Source: Paludibacteraceae bacterium
GTDB lineage: Bacteria > Bacteroidota > Bacteroidia > Bacteroidales > Paludibacteraceae
Direction: 5' to 3'
NCBI GenBank assembly: GCA_017938155.1
Contig: JAGBCD010000003.1
Location: 1 to 43,120 of the forward strand
Length of the DNA stretch: 43,120 nt
Below the pieces are notes generated by a model. It had not been told where the DNA came from. It was given only the letters and a program-made list of their open reading frames with translations, and ran no database searches. Position 1 is the first letter of the stretch; each line of letters opens with the position of its first letter. The translations under genes and the position numbers were made by a program. Shown piece by piece: positions 10,383 to 43,045 of this stretch.

Positions 10383-12737
10383 TTAATATGAAACCATGTA
10401 TTTGGCAGTCTTAGTCCCTTGTTTGATGATAAACACCCCACCCTGCAGATTGGCAACTGAATTGCTCACAAGTCGCCCCATTACATCGTAGATCTCAACA
10501 GGTTGTGACAAGTCGATAACCTCCTCTAAATGGTCTGGTGGATTCATTCCTTCCCAATTGGCATGGAGTGTTCCTCTCCAATAGGGAGGTATAGAATCAA
10601 TAGATGCTCCTACAAACATAGGATTGTCCCACCAACCAAGGAAAGGATAGCCATCGGGATGGAACAAGGTAGTAGGTAAGATATATGTAGCATTGACTGA
10701 TGTTGGTAATGTGTACATGCCTTTGGATGCTTGGTAAGCAGGGCCCCACTGCTGGGGTAATCCAGCTTGAGTAAAATCGCCCACCTCAGCCCAAGTAATC
10801 TGCTCGCCCGATGCATAATAAACCTTGTTGGTAGCATTGAAGAAAGCATAAAGATTGAAGCGCCATTGACGGACGTCGGAAATAACACCTGCTATGCTTT
10901 GGATGTATTCGGCCAACCATAGCCAATCGGGATGTTGCGTCATGAACTCCAACCCTACTGCCTGAGAAAAACCACTGGGCCATGTATATTCTAAAATGGA
11001 AGTTGTAGGCAAGTCCCTACCCTTGACATAATTGGGATAGAGAGCAGCATAGAACGCATCAAAATCTTTTTTGAAGTTGTCCCATAATTCTTCTCTCGTC
11101 GGTACGTCAACATGAGGAAATTCACCGCCATTCAGTTCCCACGTTATGGCTGGTTTCCACTCGGGTTCTGGTCCTTCTACGGCATTCTTGTCCTCGTTAT
11201 AGAGTGCTACTCCATGTTCTACACCATACCTATCGTAAGAAAAAACAGCGAGCGTAGTGTGGGTCAGGTCGCCTAAGGTAGTAGCATCGAAACTATAACC
11301 GTTAACCACTTTTTGCAAATAGGTAGGATTGTTTCGCGCATTCCCCAAGGCAATACCTTTGGGATATGCATAGACTGTAAATCGGTTTGCAGTTGGGTGT
11401 GACCACGTCAATGTGGTACCCTCCAACGTTAAGTTTTCAGGCGCAGACAAGGTGTCGGTCACTTTCCAATCAATAGGTGGTGTCAAAGCCTTGTAAATAA
11501 AATGCGAATTGGCTATTTTGCTATGCATCTTTAGATACGACGTTGTATTGTAGAAAACAGCACCCGTGTAACCAGAAGACAAGTTTGCACGATTGGCATC
11601 TATCTCTCGTTGAATCTCCAACACGCCATCCTCATATCCCTTGGACCCATCATAAGCCTTGTATGCAGCAGGAGATGGGAAAAAGTAAACTTTCTTGCCG
11701 TTGGGCAACTGATTGGAAAAATGTTCGCATACATCTTGACTCCACCATTTGCATAGTACATCATAATCCTGCAATGGTACTCGTGTGGACCAATAGAGTT
11801 GTGGGTTGACATAGTCAACATATCCATTTTTGATCCATTCTATGGGATTGCAATATAAATGTGTGTACGAATCGGCGCCGCGAATTCCCTCGGGCAAGGT
11901 TATATTATAGGCCGTCGCAGCCTTGGCGTCCACTGTCCAAATACCACCGGATCCCATTCCCATTTTCACCCATGGTTTGACCGATTGAATGCTATCGTAA
12001 ACACCCTTGATAACAGCATCTACATTGCTACGTCGCCAATCATCCAACGTATTGCCGTCGTTGTTCATATCCGTCACTTGAGCAGGATGGTAATACAAGG
12101 CTTGAGAACGTTGGTCCTCATTGGTCGTACCTCCATAAGCATAAAAATAGTCATCCATTACAATACCATCCACATCGTATCGATTGATAATCTCCATGAG
12201 CACCTTAATCACATATGCACGCGCATCGGGATAGCCAGGGTCGATGATATATCCCATGAAAGAGCCTTCATTATTGTACTTGATCAACCATTCTCCTGCG
12301 TTGTTCCACACAGGGTCGGATGTAGCCAAGGAAGATGTAGAGGCACGAAAAGGATTGACCCAAACATGCAATTCCAAGCCTCTCTTGTGTGCTTCCTCCA
12401 CGGCAAAAGCTAACGGATCGTAACCAGGATCCTGACCACGTGTACCGGTTAATGCTGCTGACCAAGGTTCGTATGAGGACTGATACATAGCATCGCATAA
12501 TGCACGCACTTGCATACATATAGCATTCATATTTCCCGCTACCATCTTATCAAGGATATCGGTCAACTCTTTTTGTTGGCGCAAACGATTGGCCTCAGAT
12601 GTTGCTTTGGTTTTTGGCCAATCGATACTGGAAACAGTGGCGAGCCAAGTAGCACGAAACTCATGCTTGGGCGGTCTGGCTACTATGGTAGGAAGTAACA
12701 ATAACAAGAGTGCAATGGATAGGAAAATTCTTTTCAT
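10383..12737 (-). CDS. Exported GHL10-family (DUF187) glycosidase-like protein
   Basis: 784 residues with a signal peptide ending near IVARP. Residues ~25-400 match the GHL10/YngK-type TIM-barrel family: EFRATWLATVSSIDWP at the start, ELHVWVNPFRAS near 120, DGIVMDDYFYAYGG near 190, and YVDYVNPQLYWS near 305. A fibronectin-like region follows (~425-510). An InlB-like segment opens with ITWELNGGEF near 535, contains a long insertion and closes with GWWDNPMF. The last ~35 residues (PVEIYDVMGRL..., GGVFIIKQG) resemble type 9 secretion sorting tails. Family members are thought to act on glycans; the substrate here is unknown. It is a single-gene unit with its own promoter. Confidence 0.85.
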   Translation of the reverse strand: MKRIFLSIALLLLLLPTIVARPPKHEFRATWLATVSSIDWPKTKATSEANRLRQQKELTDILDKMVAGNMNAICMQVRALCDAMYQSSYEPWSAALTGTRGQDPGYDPLAFAVEEAHKRGLELHVWVNPFRASTSSLATSDPVWNNAGEWLIKYNNEGSFMGYIIDPGYPDARAYVIKVLMEIINRYDVDGIVMDDYFYAYGGTTNEDQRSQALYYHPAQVTDMNNDGNTLDDWRRSNVDAVIKGVYDSIQSVKPWVKMGMGSGGIWTVDAKAATAYNITLPEGIRGADSYTHLYCNPIEWIKNGYVDYVNPQLYWSTRVPLQDYDVLCKWWSQDVCEHFSNQLPNGKKVYFFPSPAAYKAYDGSKGYEDGVLEIQREIDANRANLSSGYTGAVFYNTTSYLKMHSKIANSHFIYKALTPPIDWKVTDTLSAPENLTLEGTTLTWSHPTANRFTVYAYPKGIALGNARNNPTYLQKVVNGYSFDATTLGDLTHTTLAVFSYDRYGVEHGVALYNEDKNAVEGPEPEWKPAITWELNGGEFPHVDVPTREELWDNFKKDFDAFYAALYPNYVKGRDLPTTSILEYTWPSGFSQAVGLEFMTQHPDWLWLAEYIQSIAGVISDVRQWRFNLYAFFNATNKVYYASGEQITWAEVGDFTQAGLPQQWGPAYQASKGMYTLPTSVNATYILPTTLFHPDGYPFLGWWDNPMFVGASIDSIPPYWRGTLHANWEGMNPPDHLEEVIDLSQPVEIYDVMGRLVSNSVANLQGGVFIIKQGTKTAKYMVSY

Positions 12738-12766
12738 TGGTATGATGGATTAACGTATTTAGGCAG

Positions 12767-12798
12767 CAAAGTTAGTGTATTTTTTTCAAACATCCAAA
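12767..12798 (-). promoter_or_regulatory. Promoter of the GHL10 gene
   Basis: Minus strand: TTTG at 12798-12795, 20 bases, TAACTTTG at 12774-12767. It lies about 30 nt before the start codon at 12737. Confidence 0.75.
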
Positions 12799-12876
12799 TT
12801 TGGAATTTAGGAATGGGTCATTTAGGAATTTTTCAAATGGGTAAACGCAATATTATGCATAACAAGGGCAGTACAA

Positions 12877-12908
12877 TTTGGTTATATAAAAAAAATGTAC
12901 TAATTTTG
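12877..12908 (+). promoter_or_regulatory. Promoter of the mtaB operon
   Basis: TTTG at 12877-12880, 20 bases, TAATTTTG at 12901-12908. It is divergent from the GHL10 promoter. A start of mtaB at 12926 would leave almost no leader, which favours the ATG at 12965. Confidence 0.75.
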
Positions 12909-12964
12909 TTGCCTAATAGGATATCATGCATATCACATTGTATCCTACAAACAAAGATATTAAG

Positions 12965-14278
12965 ATGAAAATTAAGTTTGTTACATTAGGGTGCAAATTG
13001 AATTTCGCTGAGAGTAGCGCTATTGGCAAAGAGTTGATAGCGCAAGGTCATCAACGTGTTGGGCGTCAAGAGCAAGCAGATGTGTGCATTATCAACACAT
13101 GTACTGTTACGGACCATGCAGACCAAAAAGACAGGCAAGCAATACACCGAATACGTAGAGAGAATCCGAATGCGACTCTTATCGTGACAGGGTGTTATGC
13201 TCAATTGAACAGGAGCCAAGAGGTACGCGACAAACATGCATCCTTATGGGCTCAAGTGGACTATATCGTGGGGCAAGATGAAAAATCCAGCATACCCGAT
13301 ATCGTAGCACACTTGGCTGAAAAACAGGCATCTGGCACTCACACTGCGCTACAAGTGGCTGTAGAAGAGCCCTGCCACTTCAACCATGCCGTATCCTATG
13401 ACGATCGCACGCGTTGTTTCCTCAAGGTACAAGATGGTTGCAACTATTTTTGTTCGTACTGCACGATACCTTTCGCACGTGGAAGGAGTCGTAACCCTGC
13501 CATCAAGGAGTTGGTCGTCCAAGCTACTTCTGCTATAGAGCAAGGCGCCAAAGAACTGGTACTAACAGGTGTGAATATAGGAGACTTCGGACGAAGTACT
13601 AATGAAAATTTCATATCATTGCTTAAGGCATTGGATGCGATAGAACGTTCCGAGTTTCGCGTACGAATCGGTAGTTGTGAACCGAACTTACTAACGGAAG
13701 AGATTATTGATTTTGTAGCACAGTCCAAACACTTTACCCCACACTTTCATATTCCCCTCCAGTCGGGAAGTAATCGGGTGTTGAAAATCATGGGTAGGCG
13801 CTATACACGTGAACTATTTGCCCAACGTGTCGCCTATATAAGAAGTGTATTGCCCGATGCATTTATAGGCGTAGATTGTATGGTCGGTGTGCGAGGAGAG
13901 GATGAGGCATGTTACCAAGAGTATTTAGAATTTATTCGAGAGCTCCCTGTTAGTCAATTGCATGTTTTCACCTATTCTGAACGTGCCAATACGCGTATCT
14001 TGAAAGAGGAACTATTGGTTGTTCCACACAAGCAACGGGAAGCACGTAGCAGTGAAATGCGACAATTGAGTGATAGGAAGACACAGGCCTTCTATGAACA
14101 AAATATAGGAAAGCCCCTTACCATCCTATGGGAATCGAACCAATGCAAAATAAACGGAGTAGCCTACATGAACGGATTTAGTGAAAACTACATTAAAGTA
14201 AGTGCTCCGTATGATAAAAATAAAATCAACACGTTTGAAACAATCACATTAGCCCCATCACATTTACTATCTAAATAA
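12965..14278 (+). CDS. mtaB: tRNA t6A37 methylthiotransferase
   Basis: 437 residues from the ATG at 12965, which gives the family start MKIKFVTLGCKLNFAES; an in-frame ATG at 12926 would add 13 unmatched residues. MtaB converts t6A37 of certain tRNAs to ms2t6A with two [4Fe-4S] clusters. The N-terminal cluster cysteines are in TLGCKLN, NTCTVT and TGCYAQ. The radical SAM motif is Cys159-x3-Cys163-x2-Cys166 in DGCNYFCSYCTIPFARG. A C-terminal TRAM-like region ends the protein. The KLNFAES signature separates it from RimO and MiaB. It is the first gene of an operon with the OmpA protein, 4 nt apart. Confidence 0.92.
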   Translation: MKIKFVTLGCKLNFAESSAIGKELIAQGHQRVGRQEQADVCIINTCTVTDHADQKDRQAIHRIRRENPNATLIVTGCYAQLNRSQEVRDKHASLWAQVDYIVGQDEKSSIPDIVAHLAEKQASGTHTALQVAVEEPCHFNHAVSYDDRTRCFLKVQDGCNYFCSYCTIPFARGRSRNPAIKELVVQATSAIEQGAKELVLTGVNIGDFGRSTNENFISLLKALDAIERSEFRVRIGSCEPNLLTEEIIDFVAQSKHFTPHFHIPLQSGSNRVLKIMGRRYTRELFAQRVAYIRSVLPDAFIGVDCMVGVRGEDEACYQEYLEFIRELPVSQLHVFTYSERANTRILKEELLVVPHKQREARSSEMRQLSDRKTQAFYEQNIGKPLTILWESNQCKINGVAYMNGFSENYIKVSAPYDKNKINTFETITLAPSHLLSK

Positions 14279-39614: not shown

Positions 39615-42600
39615 TTATAGCGCAATGAATACTTTCTTGCCGTTGATGATATAGAAGCCACTTACTGTTGGAGTATCCACTTTGCGTCCTAAGATGTCGT
39701 ACACTCCTTCTTGCATTGGTGCAACGATAGATTCGTCGGTGATATTATCCAACGCAGTCGTTGCGTTCTCTTCGGAGTAATCCATACTCACACGTTTGAT
39801 GCCCGGTATAGCAGGGTGATCTTTGTCAGATATCTCATCCAATTCTATGTATGCACGATTTGCAGCCAAGGAGCAGCCATCTCCACACAATACCATCCTA
39901 TCGCCTGCAACAAGGTACTTTCCTTTTAGGAAATTGGATGCAGCCGTGATGCCATCAAAGGTGCCATGCAAACCATTATGCGAAAGTGGGATGGCGCTGG
40001 TGGTATTATCGTAATAGATAGTCACCTCATTGCTGTGAGGATAGAAGATATAAGGCTTGCCTGCTTCAAGAGTCTTCACTTCGTCGAAGAAAATCTTCTT
40101 TTTGTTTTTGAGGATGTGTGCTATCTCATAGAACGTTGCTCCTGTGAAGTTGCTCGAACCATGAGGCAAACAGATGGTGTTGTAGCCGATGCGTACATTG
40201 CGAGAATAGGAACCATTATTTTGCTCAAACTCTGCTGTGAGTTTCATATCTTCAGTCACTGTCAATGTGCGTGGATTGTCGGTGTTGCCGTCAGACCATT
40301 GCGTAAAGGTATAGCCATCGTTTGGAGTAGCTGCAATAATCGCAGCAGTTTCACAACCTGGTTCTTGAGTGATAACAGCATTACCCATTGATTCGTCTGC
40401 AGAAGAAACCTTGAAATCAAAATGGAATTCATCATTTTCAACAAACTCGCCCACATATTCCGCCCAATACACTGCCTCGTATGCAGATTTGGTTCCGCAA
40501 GGGATATAAACAGTAATAGGAGTTTCTCTTGAAAAAAAAGTATTGCCATCTACAATTGGTGGAGTTGTAGCATTACTAGCAATAGAGGGATAAGTAGAAT
40601 ATGCAAAAGCGTATTCTTTTATTGTTGTAATACTCTTTGGAATAACTGTATTTTGACACCCAACTAAAAGTGTATTTGTGCCCGTTTCAATAATTGCATT
40701 GCAATTATCTCGGCTATCATAGTTAGGATTACCTTCTTCAACCACTATAGATGTCGCAGAATTACATCCAGTAAGGATGGCACCTTCTATCTTTGTAACA
40801 CTTTTAGGGATTTTTATCGAAGTCAATGAAGGACAGAACACGAAAGCTCTAACACCAATCGTTTTTACACTATTTGGTATTGTGATTGAAGTGAGAGTAG
40901 AGCAATACCAAAATGCTGATCTACCAATGGTGGTTACAGTATTAGGGATAATTGTATTTTTACATCCAGCAATTAGAGTATTGGTTGCAGTTTCTACAAT
41001 AGCGTTGCAATTATTACGACTGTCATATACAGGATTTCCATTCTCAACGATTATACGGCTTAATGCTGGACATCCTGCTAGTGAAGCCTCTTCTATATAT
41101 ATAACACTATTGGGGATGCTAATAGAGGTCAAAGAGGTGCAATTTCTGAAAGCCTGATTACCTATACATGTTACACTATTAGGTATAGTAATGGAAGTGA
41201 GAAATGAGCACCCTTCGAACGCGTTATATAACACAATTTGTGTGCCATTTTTGATGGTATAAGTACCTGTTAAATCATCTTTTGCCTTGATTAGACAATT
41301 TCCCATATACATACACCCGTTCTCCCAATAGGATTCATTATTGTATATTGAAGTGCCATCGAAAGCCCCATCTCCGATACTCGTCACGCTATTAGGAATA
41401 GTCACCGAAGTCAAAGAGGAGCAACCTGAGAAAGCACCCTTTGCGATACTCGTCACGCTATTAGGAATGGTCACCGAAGTCAAAGAGGAGCAATCTCTGA
41501 AAGCATAATCAGCTATAATGCGTGTTCCATTTTTAATTGTATAAACACCTGATAAACTCTCTTTTGCAGCTACTAAACAATTGCTAATGTATAGCACCCC
41601 ATTCTCCCAATTTGAGTTATCGTTGAATATCCCAGTATTAACGAAAGCCTCTTCTTCGATACTCGTCACGCTGTTAGGAATGGTCACCGAAGTCAAAGAG
41701 GTGCAATCTCTAAAAGCCCAATATCCGATACTCGTCACACTATTAGGAATGGTCACCGAGGTCAAAGAGGAGCAATTATAGAAAGCCCGACCTCCGATAC
41801 TCGTCACACTACTTGGAATGGTCACCGAGGTCAAAGAGGTGCAATAATAGAAAGCCCAATATCCGATACTCGTCACACTATTAGGAATGGTCACCGAGGT
41901 CAAAGAGGAGCAATATTCGAAAGTCGAAAGTTCTATACTCGTCACGCTACTTGGAATGGTCACCGAGGTAAAAGAGGAGCAATGGCTGAAAGCAGAAGTT
42001 CCGATACTCGTCACACTATTAGGAATGGTCACCGAGGGCAAAGAGGAACAATTTCTGAAAGCTTCATCTCCGATACTCGTCACGCTATTAGGAATGGTCA
42101 CCGAGGTCAAAGAGGTGCAATTCCAAAAAGCATAATTTCCGATACCAACGATACCATTAGGAATCGTAACCATTTTGATATCTCTTTTACAACCAACAAC
42201 TATATTGTCTTTTATCAACAATCCATCTTGTTCCTTATCTGCCAATATTGCTCCCCAATTATTATTAGACGTGCAAACACTGTTATTGATAAACTTATCC
42301 TTTGGTAAAACACAATAATAGAAAGCATTATATCCGATACTCGTCACGCTGTTAGGAATGCTCACCGAAGTCAAAGAGGAGCAACCTTGGAAAGCCACAT
42401 TTCCGATCCTCGTCACGCCATTAGGAATGGTCACCGAGGTCAAAGAGGAGCAATAAGAGAAAGCCCCAATTCCGATACTTGTCACTGCATAGGTAATGCC
42501 GTTATACGTAACAGACGATGGGATTGTAATATCCCCTGAATATTTAGTATTTCCACTTGTTACCTCCACTGTATAGGGGGCAACATTGCTGGTAATGTTA

Positions 42601-42686
42601 TAATAAAAATCTCCCGATTGAAAATCGTATGCCCAAAGCATAACGGAGGTCATTAGGGTTAGAAAAAGAGTAAAAAACTTTTTCAT
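39615..42686 (-). CDS. BspA-type leucine-rich-repeat surface protein
   Basis: 1023 residues. A signal peptide (hydrophobic run ending VMLWAYD) is followed by a large array of ~23-residue LRR_5 units with the consensus SVTIPNSVTSIGxxAFxxCSSLT (written here in two parts: SVTIPNSVTSIG and AFxxCSSLT). Non-repeat inserts such as NWGAILADKEQDG and ENGVLYISNCL break the array. After the repeats comes an InlB-like segment (~755-825, with DGYTFTQWSDGNTDNPRTL), a beta-rich region, and a short C-terminal tail (GVYDILGRKV, GFYIINGKKV) like those of Bacteroidales secreted proteins. BspA-type proteins mediate adhesion to host matrix or other bacteria in some oral species; the ligand here is unknown. Confidence 0.9.
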   Translation of the reverse strand: MKKFFTLFLTLMTSVMLWAYDFQSGDFYYNITSNVAPYTVEVTSGNTKYSGDITIPSSVTYNGITYAVTSIGIGAFSYCSSLTSVTIPNGVTRIGNVAFQGCSSLTSVSIPNSVTSIGYNAFYYCVLPKDKFINNSVCTSNNNWGAILADKEQDGLLIKDNIVVGCKRDIKMVTIPNGIVGIGNYAFWNCTSLTSVTIPNSVTSIGDEAFRNCSSLPSVTIPNSVTSIGTSAFSHCSSFTSVTIPSSVTSIELSTFEYCSSLTSVTIPNSVTSIGYWAFYYCTSLTSVTIPSSVTSIGGRAFYNCSSLTSVTIPNSVTSIGYWAFRDCTSLTSVTIPNSVTSIEEEAFVNTGIFNDNSNWENGVLYISNCLVAAKESLSGVYTIKNGTRIIADYAFRDCSSLTSVTIPNSVTSIAKGAFSGCSSLTSVTIPNSVTSIGDGAFDGTSIYNNESYWENGCMYMGNCLIKAKDDLTGTYTIKNGTQIVLYNAFEGCSFLTSITIPNSVTCIGNQAFRNCTSLTSISIPNSVIYIEEASLAGCPALSRIIVENGNPVYDSRNNCNAIVETATNTLIAGCKNTIIPNTVTTIGRSAFWYCSTLTSITIPNSVKTIGVRAFVFCPSLTSIKIPKSVTKIEGAILTGCNSATSIVVEEGNPNYDSRDNCNAIIETGTNTLLVGCQNTVIPKSITTIKEYAFAYSTYPSIASNATTPPIVDGNTFFSRETPITVYIPCGTKSAYEAVYWAEYVGEFVENDEFHFDFKVSSADESMGNAVITQEPGCETAAIIAATPNDGYTFTQWSDGNTDNPRTLTVTEDMKLTAEFEQNNGSYSRNVRIGYNTICLPHGSSNFTGATFYEIAHILKNKKKIFFDEVKTLEAGKPYIFYPHSNEVTIYYDNTTSAIPLSHNGLHGTFDGITAASNFLKGKYLVAGDRMVLCGDGCSLAANRAYIELDEISDKDHPAIPGIKRVSMDYSEENATTALDNITDESIVAPMQEGVYDILGRKVDTPTVSGFYIINGKKVFIAL
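41377..42490. repeat. 69-bp coding repeats of the BspA-like gene
   Basis: About twelve near-identical copies of a 69-bp unit, each with CTCGTCACGCTATTAGGAAT-type and GTCACCGAGGTCAAAGAGG-type blocks. Spacing is exactly 69 bp across at least 41661-42083, matching 23 residues. High DNA identity between units, beyond what the protein needs, points to recent duplication or gene conversion. Confidence 0.85.
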
Positions 42687-43007
42687 AGTTTTATATTTTG
42701 TAGGACATCGGTTCCAAATGACCTAATAAATATACGAAAAGCGTGGAACCTTACTATTGCTTATTCTCTTGACAAAGGTTCTAGCAAAACCCAACACACA
42801 AGAATAAACAATGAATGCCCACGCCGATATGCTCATCGTTGTAAAGCACAACGAATTAAACACACCAAGGGGCATTTACCGCTCTCTTGTTTCGGGTGTG
42901 TGAAAATTTGCTAGATTTTTGTCAACCAAAACAAGCGCCAATAAACGCCTTTTATTATGTCTGCTACCCTCCGCCAGCAATGTCAGACATCCCTCGGCGC
43001 AGGTTTA
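42687..43007 (-). ncRNA. Long structured leader RNA of the BspA-like gene
   Basis: The ~320-nt leader between the promoter and the ATG at 42686 has many exact complementary segments (plus-strand positions). Nested long-range helix: 42918-42925/42769-42776 (8 bp) and 42907-42915/42780-42788 (9 bp). Local hairpins: 42957-42963/42984-42990 and 42836-42842/42848-42854. Helix 42895-42901/42860-42866 with 42870-42876/42814-42820 would form a pseudoknot. Segment 42746-42752 can pair with 42775-42781, and 42745-42750 alternatively with 42710-42715, about 24 nt before the start codon. A 5-codon upstream frame lies at 42708-42691. I do not recognise a known riboswitch class. Confidence 0.6.
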
Positions 43008-43013
43008 CGGTGA

Positions 43014-43045
43014 CAAAATTACACTTTTTATTTTACATGTGCAAA
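43014..43045 (-). promoter_or_regulatory. Promoter of the leader/BspA-like unit
   Basis: Minus strand: TTTG at 43045-43042, 20 bases, TAATTTTG at 43021-43014. It is a full consensus match. It lies ~330 nt from the start codon, much farther than other promoters in the window (20-60 nt). Confidence 0.75.

What the first reader, a model, noticed from the sequence alone, without database searches (positions are those of the whole stretch)
42687..43045. Long structured leader with nested, pseudoknotted and competing helices upstream of a BspA-like adhesin
Seen: a consensus promoter ~330 nt before the gene and eight exact complementary segments of 6-9 bp. Two of them (8 and 9 bp) are nested in the order A-B...B'-A' and enclose the rest. 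One pair crosses another, as in a pseudoknot. Segment 42745-42752 has two exclusive partners, one (42710-42715) close to the start codon and one (42775-42781) that overlaps the strands of the long helix. Inference: this is a regulatory RNA that switches between two folds, or a stable RNA processed from the leader. Other genes here have leaders of only 20-60 nt.
Basis: partly seen in the sequence, partly recalled or inferred. Interest (0 to 1): 0.75.

Follow-up and report, generated by a model that had tools for sequence, protein, structure and literature searches.

The report
Kissing-hairpin leader RNA in Bacteroidales
The stretch before this surface-protein gene is one copy of a large structured RNA, absent from the Rfam library, that gut Bacteroidales place in front of many accessory genes; it is built from two hairpins with matching, fast-changing loops and ends in a terminator-like stem.

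Summary
The leader (about 42687-43007, minus strand) is one of seven full model matches in its genome. Matches occur in 104 of 151 genomes of the genus (short motif), 239 of 300 of the family and 61 of 295 of the order Bacteroidales. Rfam 15 has no match for it. In 131 of 136 copies examined a same-strand reading frame begins within 420 nt downstream, most often about 50 nt away.

Covariation supports a pseudoknotted fold: hairpins a:b and c:d carry loops that pair with each other through helices P_A, P_B and P_C, and the second hairpin sits in a stem (e:t) that abuts a conserved U-run. In 67 sequences 93.7% of cells pair, against at most 48.6% in slid controls. This resembles the plasmid R1 CopA-CopT complex, within one RNA. 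The loop helices differ on both arms between otherwise nearly identical loci.

Best explanation: a cis-acting attenuator of accessory, mostly envelope genes. The structure is firm; termination control and the signal are inferred.

The parts
43014..43045 (-). promoter: TTTG (-33 type) and TAATTTTG (-7 type)
   Evidence: copies with otherwise different promoters keep the same boxes; TAnnTTTG within 220 nt upstream in 140 of 181 copies, shuffled expectation 0.09
42687..43007 (-). whole leader, from the inferred transcription start to the base before the start codon
   Evidence: start inferred from the promoter; not mapped
42957..42990 (-). 5' hairpin ATGTCTG ... CAGACAT
   Evidence: direct reading; replaced by other hairpins in some copies; not counted for covariation
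42733..42966 (-). conserved RNA core (match to model R1)
   Evidence: E 1e-50 (the window core is one of the sequences the model was built from)
42935..42948 (-). hairpin HP0 GCGU-UUAUUG-GCGC
   Evidence: 98.9% of cells paired, 1 of 4 pairs with a double change
42926..42935 (-). strand a of hairpin a:b
   Evidence: 97.2% paired, 4 of 9 pairs with double changes
42886..42895 (-). strand b of hairpin a:b
   Evidence: cognate better than non-cognate in 119 and worse in 18 of 185 copies
42919..42925 (-). P_A 5' arm, in loop of a:b
   Evidence: 91.6% paired, 7 of 7 pairs with double changes; cognate better in 183 of 185
42769..42775 (-). P_A 3' arm, in loop of c:d
42908..42915 (-). P_B 5' arm, apical part of loop A
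   Evidence: 96.8% paired, 6 of 8 pairs with double changes; 180 of 185
42780..42787 (-). P_B 3' arm, apical part of loop C
42896..42901 (-). P_C 5' arm
   Evidence: 6 of 6 pairs with double changes but 78.6% paired; 182 of 185
42794..42799 (-). P_C 3' arm
42870..42876 (-). P_D 5' strand AAUGCCC, possible antiterminator
   Evidence: 93.8% paired, 5 of 7 pairs with double changes
42814..42820 (-). P_D 3' strand GGGCAUU, shares two bases with strand e
42819..42824 (-). strand e of the stem before the U-run
   Evidence: e:t 99.2% paired, 3 of 6 pairs with double changes; stem of at least 6 bp in 97 of 97 class-1 copies
42801..42811 (-). strand c of hairpin c:d
   Evidence: 92.2% paired, 6 of 11 pairs with double changes
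42757..42767 (-). strand d of hairpin c:d
   Evidence: cognate better in 114, worse in 32 of 185
42741..42746 (-). strand t of stem e:t
42737..42740 (-). U-run
   Evidence: at least 4 U in the 6 bases after stem e:t in 183 of 183 copies long enough to score, of 185, against 13.2% of six-base windows elsewhere in the cores
42745..42750 (-). GGUUCC, partner of the loop before the start codon
   Evidence: GGRRCC present downstream in 80 of 85 copies with GGUUCC, in 0 of 35 without (120 copies with a gap of 25-80 nt)
42701..42725 (-). 3' hairpin with loop GGAACC (42710-42715)
   Evidence: folds at -6.1 kcal/mol, z -1.2, 24 of 200 shuffles as good; covarying exceptions L028, L136, L245, L219, and L067 against
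39615..42686 (-). downstream gene, BspA-type leucine-rich-repeat protein, 1023 aa
   Evidence: PF13306 E 2.6e-133

Best explanation
This is a cis-acting leader RNA of a family spread through the order Bacteroidales and not in Rfam 15. Transcription starts about 320 nt before the gene. The first half folds into hairpin a:b with a loop of 30 nt; the second half folds into hairpin c:d inside stem e:t, which ends directly at a U-run, like a large intrinsic terminator. The two loops are complementary and pair through P_B (apical loops, as in a kiss) and P_A and P_C (flanking arms). Together with a:b and c:d this makes an intramolecular four-way junction of the kind known from plasmid antisense RNAs. 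Helix P_D shares two bases with strand e in the window copy, more in class-2 copies whose e:t stem is longer, and would weaken e:t. I infer that the balance between P_D plus loop pairing and the stem before the U-run decides whether polymerase stops or reads into the gene, and that after read-through GGUUCC is caught by the hairpin before the start codon. Shown by comparison: the helices, the U-run, the place in the leader and the gene linkage. Inferred: simultaneous geometry, termination, direction of control. Unknown: the signal.
For: Seven-helix structure: 93.7% of 3307 cells paired, 447 cells changed on both sides against 136.5 in shuffles (0 of 500), slid controls 43.6-48.6%. P_D 93.8%. 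Loop arms pair with their own partner and not with those of other copies: P_A -5.75 against -0.02 kcal/mol. Stem abutting the U-run: 97 of 97 class-1, 54 of 55 class-2, 20 of 25 other copies have at least 6 bp, shuffled 5-17% (177 of 185 copies scored). U-run in 183 of 183 scored copies, against 13.2% of windows elsewhere. The second half alone folds as one hairpin, z -4.8, 0 of 200 shuffles as good. Promoter upstream, same-strand frame downstream in 131 of 136. Ten loci from across the order that I read keep the design: a P_A-type helix of 8-9 pairs in nine (in L286 the best helix was P_B), a U-rich end in ten (broken by a C in L287) and a downstream frame in ten.
Against: No transcript data exist here: neither the start nor any termination was observed. 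In the window copy the U-run is only four U. In most copies about 50 nt more follow the U-run, with a second hairpin in class 1, which a terminator does not need. In some copies (L305, L313) the start codon follows the U-run at once, which suits control of translation equally well. P_D and e:t overlap by only two bases in the window copy, so they might coexist. e:t cognates were better in 112 but worse in 65 of 185 copies. Covariation counts do not correct for relatedness, and one of five measures (further pair types, 97 against 90.9) was reached by 22 of 500 shuffles. The rival rod pairing also exceeds its shuffles, though slightly (86.8% against 85.5%, 0 of 500).
Confidence: 0.5

Rival explanations
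1. The same RNA controls translation or mRNA stability rather than termination: the compact fold and the hairpin before the start codon hide or expose the initiation region, or protect the 5' end.
For: The GGUUCC to GGRRCC contact lies downstream of the U-run; GGRRCC begins 23 or 29-33 nt before the start codon in 69 of the 80 copies that have it. In L305 and L313 AUG follows the U-run directly.
Against: It does not explain a U-run in 183 of 183 scored copies next to a strong stem, also in class-2 copies without GGRRCC.
Confidence: 0.25
2. A riboswitch-like or protein-binding leader: the conserved internal loops and the stretch around P_D bind a small molecule or protein, and the paired loops are only scaffold.
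For: Near-invariant bases persist from genus to order; many unrelated genes share the leader, as with second-messenger riboswitches (general knowledge).
Against: No single metabolic theme among 30 downstream proteins that I chose and scanned; scaffold helices need not change on both arms faster than neutral sites.
Confidence: 0.15
3. A mobile or recombining repeat (MITE-like, or a recombination site between promoter and gene) that happens to be transcribed.
For: Several copies per genome; about 35-nt insertions in HP0; loop arms shared by unrelated loci and different in orthologous loci; only 5 of 30 fetched MBOAT loci carry it at E below 1e-30.
Against: Orientation and place between promoter and gene are nearly fixed, and the helices stay paired; no match in the phage, plasmid and viral collections searched.
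Confidence: 0.08

Closest known systems
CopA-CopT loop-loop complex of plasmid R1
   Same: Two hairpins with complementary loops; loop contact plus two flanking inter-hairpin helices and two kept stems (kissing start and leader target from passages of PMC10798244; the four-way junction details recalled)
   Different: There two RNAs from opposite strands, in trans; here both hairpins lie in one leader and many genomic copies have different loops
pT181-type antisense transcription attenuators
   Same: Loop-loop recognition linked to transcription attenuation, with loop sequence setting specificity (passages of PMC3753616; terminator role recalled)
   Different: The complementary loop is in cis; a separate antisense RNA was not looked for
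Rfam 15 cis-regulatory families of Bacteroidetes
   Same: Leader position before Bacteroidetes genes; DUF805b (RF02914) even lies between this RNA and the gene in L257
   Different: None matches this RNA itself at its gathering score in the window or in the 20 loci scanned
ops/JUMPstart, LoaP and UpxY leaders (NusG paralogues)
   Same: Leaders of glycan and other accessory operons (recalled)
   Different: Only one NusG gene was found in the own genome, 93% complete

Membership tests
Transcription attenuator with intrinsic terminator | Stable stem directly followed by a U-run in the leader | tested here: met
   97/97, 54/55, 20/25; 183/183
Transcription attenuator with intrinsic terminator | Mutually exclusive antiterminator | tested here: inconclusive
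   P_D shares bases with strand e (two in the window) and covaries; class 2 has a local stem at the same place in 52 of 55; exclusion not proven
Transcription attenuator with intrinsic terminator | Short terminated transcripts | not testable with these tools
   no RNA data
CopA-CopT-like loop-loop complex | Complementary hairpin loops and flanking helices | tested here: met
CopA-CopT-like loop-loop complex | Two separate RNAs acting in trans | tested here: not met
   both hairpins lie on one strand between promoter and gene; so it is not filed as a member
Known Rfam family | Match at gathering score | tested here: not met
Riboswitch | Ligand-binding conserved core with a metabolic gene theme | tested here: inconclusive
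   conserved bases exist; genes are mixed; binding not testable
MITE or repeat | Insertion without regard to gene orientation | tested here: not met
   131 of 136 sense frame downstream (86 of 124 at a control point), 20 of 110 divergent frame upstream
MITE or repeat | Terminal inverted repeats and target duplications | not tested
   none
NusG-paralogue antitermination leader | Specialised NusG paralogue in the genome | tested here: not met
   one genome only

The most novel reading that the evidence does not exclude
The matched loops are a specificity code. Because many near-identical leaders coexist in a cell, each must recognise its own second half and not that of another leader; loops are exchanged between loci as matched pairs and differ where neutral sites hardly do. 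Released leader RNAs might then act in trans on leaders with the same code, a chromosomal counterpart of plasmid antisense incompatibility that governs surface, glycan and peptide genes.
Probability: 0.2. Interest if true: 0.9.

Novelty: new variant of a known kind. Interest (0 to 1): 0.77.

Why it matters
Bacteroidales are major gut bacteria, and little is known of how they use RNA to control accessory genes (general knowledge). A leader of about 250 nt, before adhesins, a secreted protease, acyltransferases, glycosyltransferases, a DNA methylase and peptide precursors, would be a broad regulator missed by Rfam. The paired, rapidly exchanged loops give a natural set of matched RNA-RNA pairs and a direct test of whether paralogous leaders are insulated from each other.

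Tried and rejected
Rod model (a:d and b:c, the minimum-energy fold): a:d cells pair at 95.0% but 0 of 9 pairs have double changes (strand a hardly varies, so the test is weak there). b:c pairs in 76.1%; all 7 of its pairs have a double change somewhere, but only 14 cells in all. The two together exceed their shuffles slightly (86.8% against 85.5%, 0 of 500; pairs with double changes 2 of 500) and their slid controls clearly. Cognates: a:d better in 78, worse in 38 of 185, with nearly equal means; b:c better in 40, worse in 72. So the rod is less supported than a:b, c:d and P_A to P_C, not excluded as a second state. Partner 42776-42782 for GGUUCC: no covariation seen by eye; its ACCU is explained by a mini-hairpin GGGU:ACCU (only 80.2% paired). 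A small reading frame inside the window leader (by eye) is broken in copy C43a. Local terminator hairpin in class 1: at least 6 bp in only 2 of 97. NusG-paralogue idea. Integron attC-like site: considered, not tested. P_A uniqueness within genomes: 5 of 292 within-genome pairs share P_A against 160 of 16179 between genomes, so no avoidance within genomes was seen; this is against the code idea in its simple form. Anti-phage library: only the type III methylase L244 matched, of 10 proteins. A first U-run count used an anchor that itself demanded U, so it was redone by alignment column. Literature: eight searches that ran on structured leaders, attenuation and kissing RNAs listed nothing recognisable as this RNA; I saw listings, and passages of four papers. 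Supplements could not be read, so the numbered candidates of PMC8040213 (passages seen) may include it.

Full report
What was checked. The stretch upstream of the BspA-like gene (39615-42686, minus strand; PF13306) folds far better than shuffles: -121 kcal/mol, z -7.3, 0 of 100. Rfam 15 has no match in the window; with a lax threshold the three hits were far below their cut-offs.

It is a family. A DNA search of the own genome (1.96 Mb, 45 contigs, 93% complete) found further copies. A covariance model found seven full matches with E at most 1e-25. Six of them are among the sequences the model was built from; the seventh (C29:33056-33311) was read and has its own matched P_A arms. Partial or weak matches follow. 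Copies whose promoters differ in sequence still align at the promoter boxes and at the start of the RNA. In the genus, 81 of 151 genomes match by BLAST, with only four candidates scored per genome, and 104 of 151 by a short motif with up to two mismatches (at least one such hit belongs to a relative with a different second half, L215). Their titles name Paludibacteraceae, Bacteroidales, Ca. Colicola, one Bacteroidaceae, one Bacteroidia and one Ruminococcus MAG (perhaps a binning error), many from gut or rumen samples. No match was found in the viral, phage and plasmid collections (an exact motif in the first, one copy as query in the others). The model matches 239 of 300 family genomes at E 1e-4, six candidates scored each, and 61 of 295 order genomes at E 1e-8, seven scored each. 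Opposite-strand shadows reach about 1e-7 in the own genome, so the weak end of the family tally should not be trusted. Ten strong order-wide matches were read, all ten fetched for that purpose: nine have a P_A-type helix of 8-9 pairs (in L286 the best helix was P_B), and all end U-rich, one with a C inside.

It is a leader. I collected 185 full copies (183 distinct sequences, 80 genome labels) among 199 records with 86 labels. The labels were assigned by me from handles, accessions and contig lengths. Of 136 copies with at least 1500 nt downstream, 131 have a same-strand reading frame of at least 100 aa (60 aa if it runs off the stretch) starting within 420 nt, and in 89 of those 131 the gap is 25-80 nt. 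The same test 900 nt further on gives 86 of 124, and a divergent frame upstream is found in 20 of 110. With a shorter frame limit 174 of 185 have a frame, the commonest gaps being 46-55 nt. A Bacteroidetes promoter box lies within 220 nt upstream in 140 of 181, shuffled expectation 0.09. In the ten order-wide loci the box is present in 9 of 10, at 50-58 nt before the core in 7 of 10, and all ten have a same-strand frame of at least 60 aa within 500 nt. So the RNA sits between promoter and gene.

The genes. I chose 30 downstream proteins, 29 of the 82 non-redundant ones and the window's own. Of these, 18 had a Pfam match: BspA-type repeats (four), a trypsin-like protease, an MBOAT and a type-3 acyltransferase, a sulfatase, an ABC transporter subunit, a DegT-type and a class I/II aminotransferase, two family-2 glycosyltransferases, GtrA, a polysaccharide deacetylase, a sorting-domain protein, a glycan-transferase N-terminal domain and a type III DNA methylase; 12 had none. 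Some without a match look like twin-arginine Cys-rich peptide precursors (by eye; kind recalled). The theme is accessory, mostly envelope-facing functions, not one pathway. For one gene family (MBOAT), 5 of 30 fetched loci carry the RNA at E below 1e-30, five more a shorter relative at 1e-8 to 1e-10, and the other 20 none at E 1e-6, so leader and gene are separable; one of the 30 loci (L296) lacks the gene start.

The structure. Covariation over 160 distinct copies put P_A, P_B and P_C at the top: the eleven best column pairs all lie in them, with z 17.7-27.6 and 91-99% standard pairs. On an alignment of 67 diverse copies, chosen by me to span classes, seven helices with 51 pairs give 93.7% paired cells and 447 double changes against 136.5 in shuffles; slid controls pair at 43.6-48.6%. 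One of the five measures (further pair types) was reached by 22 of 500 shuffles. P_A has double changes in 7 of 7 pairs, P_B in 6 of 8, P_C in 6 of 6 (but only 78.6% paired), c:d in 6 of 11, a:b in 4 of 9, e:t in 3 of 6, HP0 in 1 of 4. P_D is supported too: 93.8%, 5 of 7. These tests do not correct for relatedness.

Cognate pairing. Across 185 copies, arms pair better with their own partner than with partners of other copies in 183 (P_A), 180 (P_B) and 182 (P_C). For a:b the split is 119 better to 18 worse, c:d 114 to 32, e:t 112 to 65. The rival rod helices give 78 to 38 with almost equal means (a:d) and 40 to 72 (b:c). In one search a:d has no double change and b:c only 14 cells, though the two together still exceed shuffles slightly. 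I therefore prefer the two-hairpin fold but do not exclude the rod as a second state.

Reading the fold. The loop of a:b holds P_A5-P_B5-P_C5 and the loop of c:d holds P_C3-P_B3-P_A3. Strand order around the contact is a, P_A, d, c, P_C, b: a four-way junction with a:b and c:d as kept stems, P_A and P_C as inter-hairpin helices, and P_B as the apical contact. That is the arrangement I recall for CopA-CopT. Passages of PMC10798244 describe its hairpin kiss and report that extending such a contact beyond six pairs is hard, so whether all helices form at once is open. Strand e pairs with t directly before a U-run: at least 6 bp in 97 of 97 class-1 copies, 54 of 55 class-2 and 20 of 25 others, against 5-17% in shuffles (177 of 185 copies could be scored). 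Class-2 copies can form a second, local stem at the same place (52 of 55). Of 183 copies long enough to score, all 183 have at least four U in the six bases after the stem; elsewhere in the cores 13.2% of windows do. The second half of the window leader alone folds into one long hairpin, -32.9 kcal/mol, z -4.8.

The contact near the start codon. Copies with GGUUCC before the U-run have GGRRCC between RNA and gene in 80 of 85, copies without it in 0 of 35 (the 120 copies with a gap of 25-80 nt). The two groups are largely two sequence classes, so this alone could be shared descent. Over all 120 the own downstream leader is the better partner in 88 and the worse in 26; for the 35 without GGUUCC there is no advantage (-3.44 against -3.83 kcal/mol). 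Four exceptions change both sides together (L028, L136, L245, L219), while L067 breaks the contact and L026 has a changed segment without a partner hairpin (by eye). The window copy uses 42745-42750 with 42710-42715.

Fast, matched change. Among 62 pairs of copies with homologous genes and cores at least 90% identical outside the loop helices (not independent pairs), third positions are 76% identical, the 3' leader 96%, the core outside the loop helices 95%, but P_A only 44%. In L020 and L025 third positions are 100% and upstream DNA 99% identical while P_A is 29% identical, paired in both. Other pairs keep all loops. Among 182 copies there are 101 P_A sequences, and the same P_A occurs with different P_B and P_C. 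Since identical loop sets turn up at loci with different genes (L018 and L020), exchange between paralogous leaders is the simplest cause. Selection for difference is possible but not shown, and sharing within genomes (5 of 292 pairs) is not rarer than between genomes (160 of 16179).

How it most likely works. I favour an attenuator: pairing of the first half with the second, and P_D with e, compete with or shape the stem before the U-run. I put this at about 0.5; control of translation or stability at 0.25; a ligand- or protein-sensing leader, which could also be the trigger of the first, at 0.15; a repeat without regulatory role at 0.08. A single NusG gene was found in the genome, which speaks against a dedicated NusG paralogue.

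Novelty. No Rfam family matches, and the literature searches listed nothing like it (listings, with passages seen of PMC8040213, PMC7366714, PMC10798244 and PMC3753616). I rate it a new variant of a known kind: an attenuator-like leader with an intramolecular loop-loop complex.

Noticed in passing
L011:10403-12998: A copy of the RNA (L011:9680-9912) stands about 490 nt before a frame that looks like a variable secreted protein, followed by a frame that looks like a reverse transcriptase (11745-12998), possibly a diversity-generating retroelement; read by eye only.
   Followed up: no
L257:2212-2246: Rfam DUF805b RNA (RF02914, E 2e-11) lies just downstream of this RNA, on the same strand.
   Followed up: no
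L304:3016-3216 (also L307, L310, L314, L317): A shorter relative of about 200 nt before MBOAT genes, with its own long complementary arms and a U-run that is directly followed by the start codon; perhaps a separate class.
   Followed up: partly
L056, L057, L059, L064, L066: A hairpin of about 35 nt is inserted in the loop of HP0 in several copies, four of these five before MBOAT genes.
   Followed up: no
upstream of cores such as L076, L045, L042: Some copies have one or more small hairpins of the type CGTCACTTACTGACGTTAAAC or CGCTGGCACCGACAGCGTAAAA between the promoter and the core.
   Followed up: no
L010:5146-5293 (C32), L015:3-59 (C29): Promoter plus only the first part of the RNA, 97% and 95% identical to the window copy; in C32 directly before another gene. 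C32 and the paralogue C43a also share an upstream flank with GTCGG repeats.
   Followed up: no
L215:1486-1520: The first part of the RNA (5' hairpin and HP0) is followed by an unrelated second half before a secreted-protein gene.
   Followed up: no
L208:1812-1871; L286:926-962: SAM-II riboswitch and abiF RNA matches near, but not part of, two copies.
   Followed up: no
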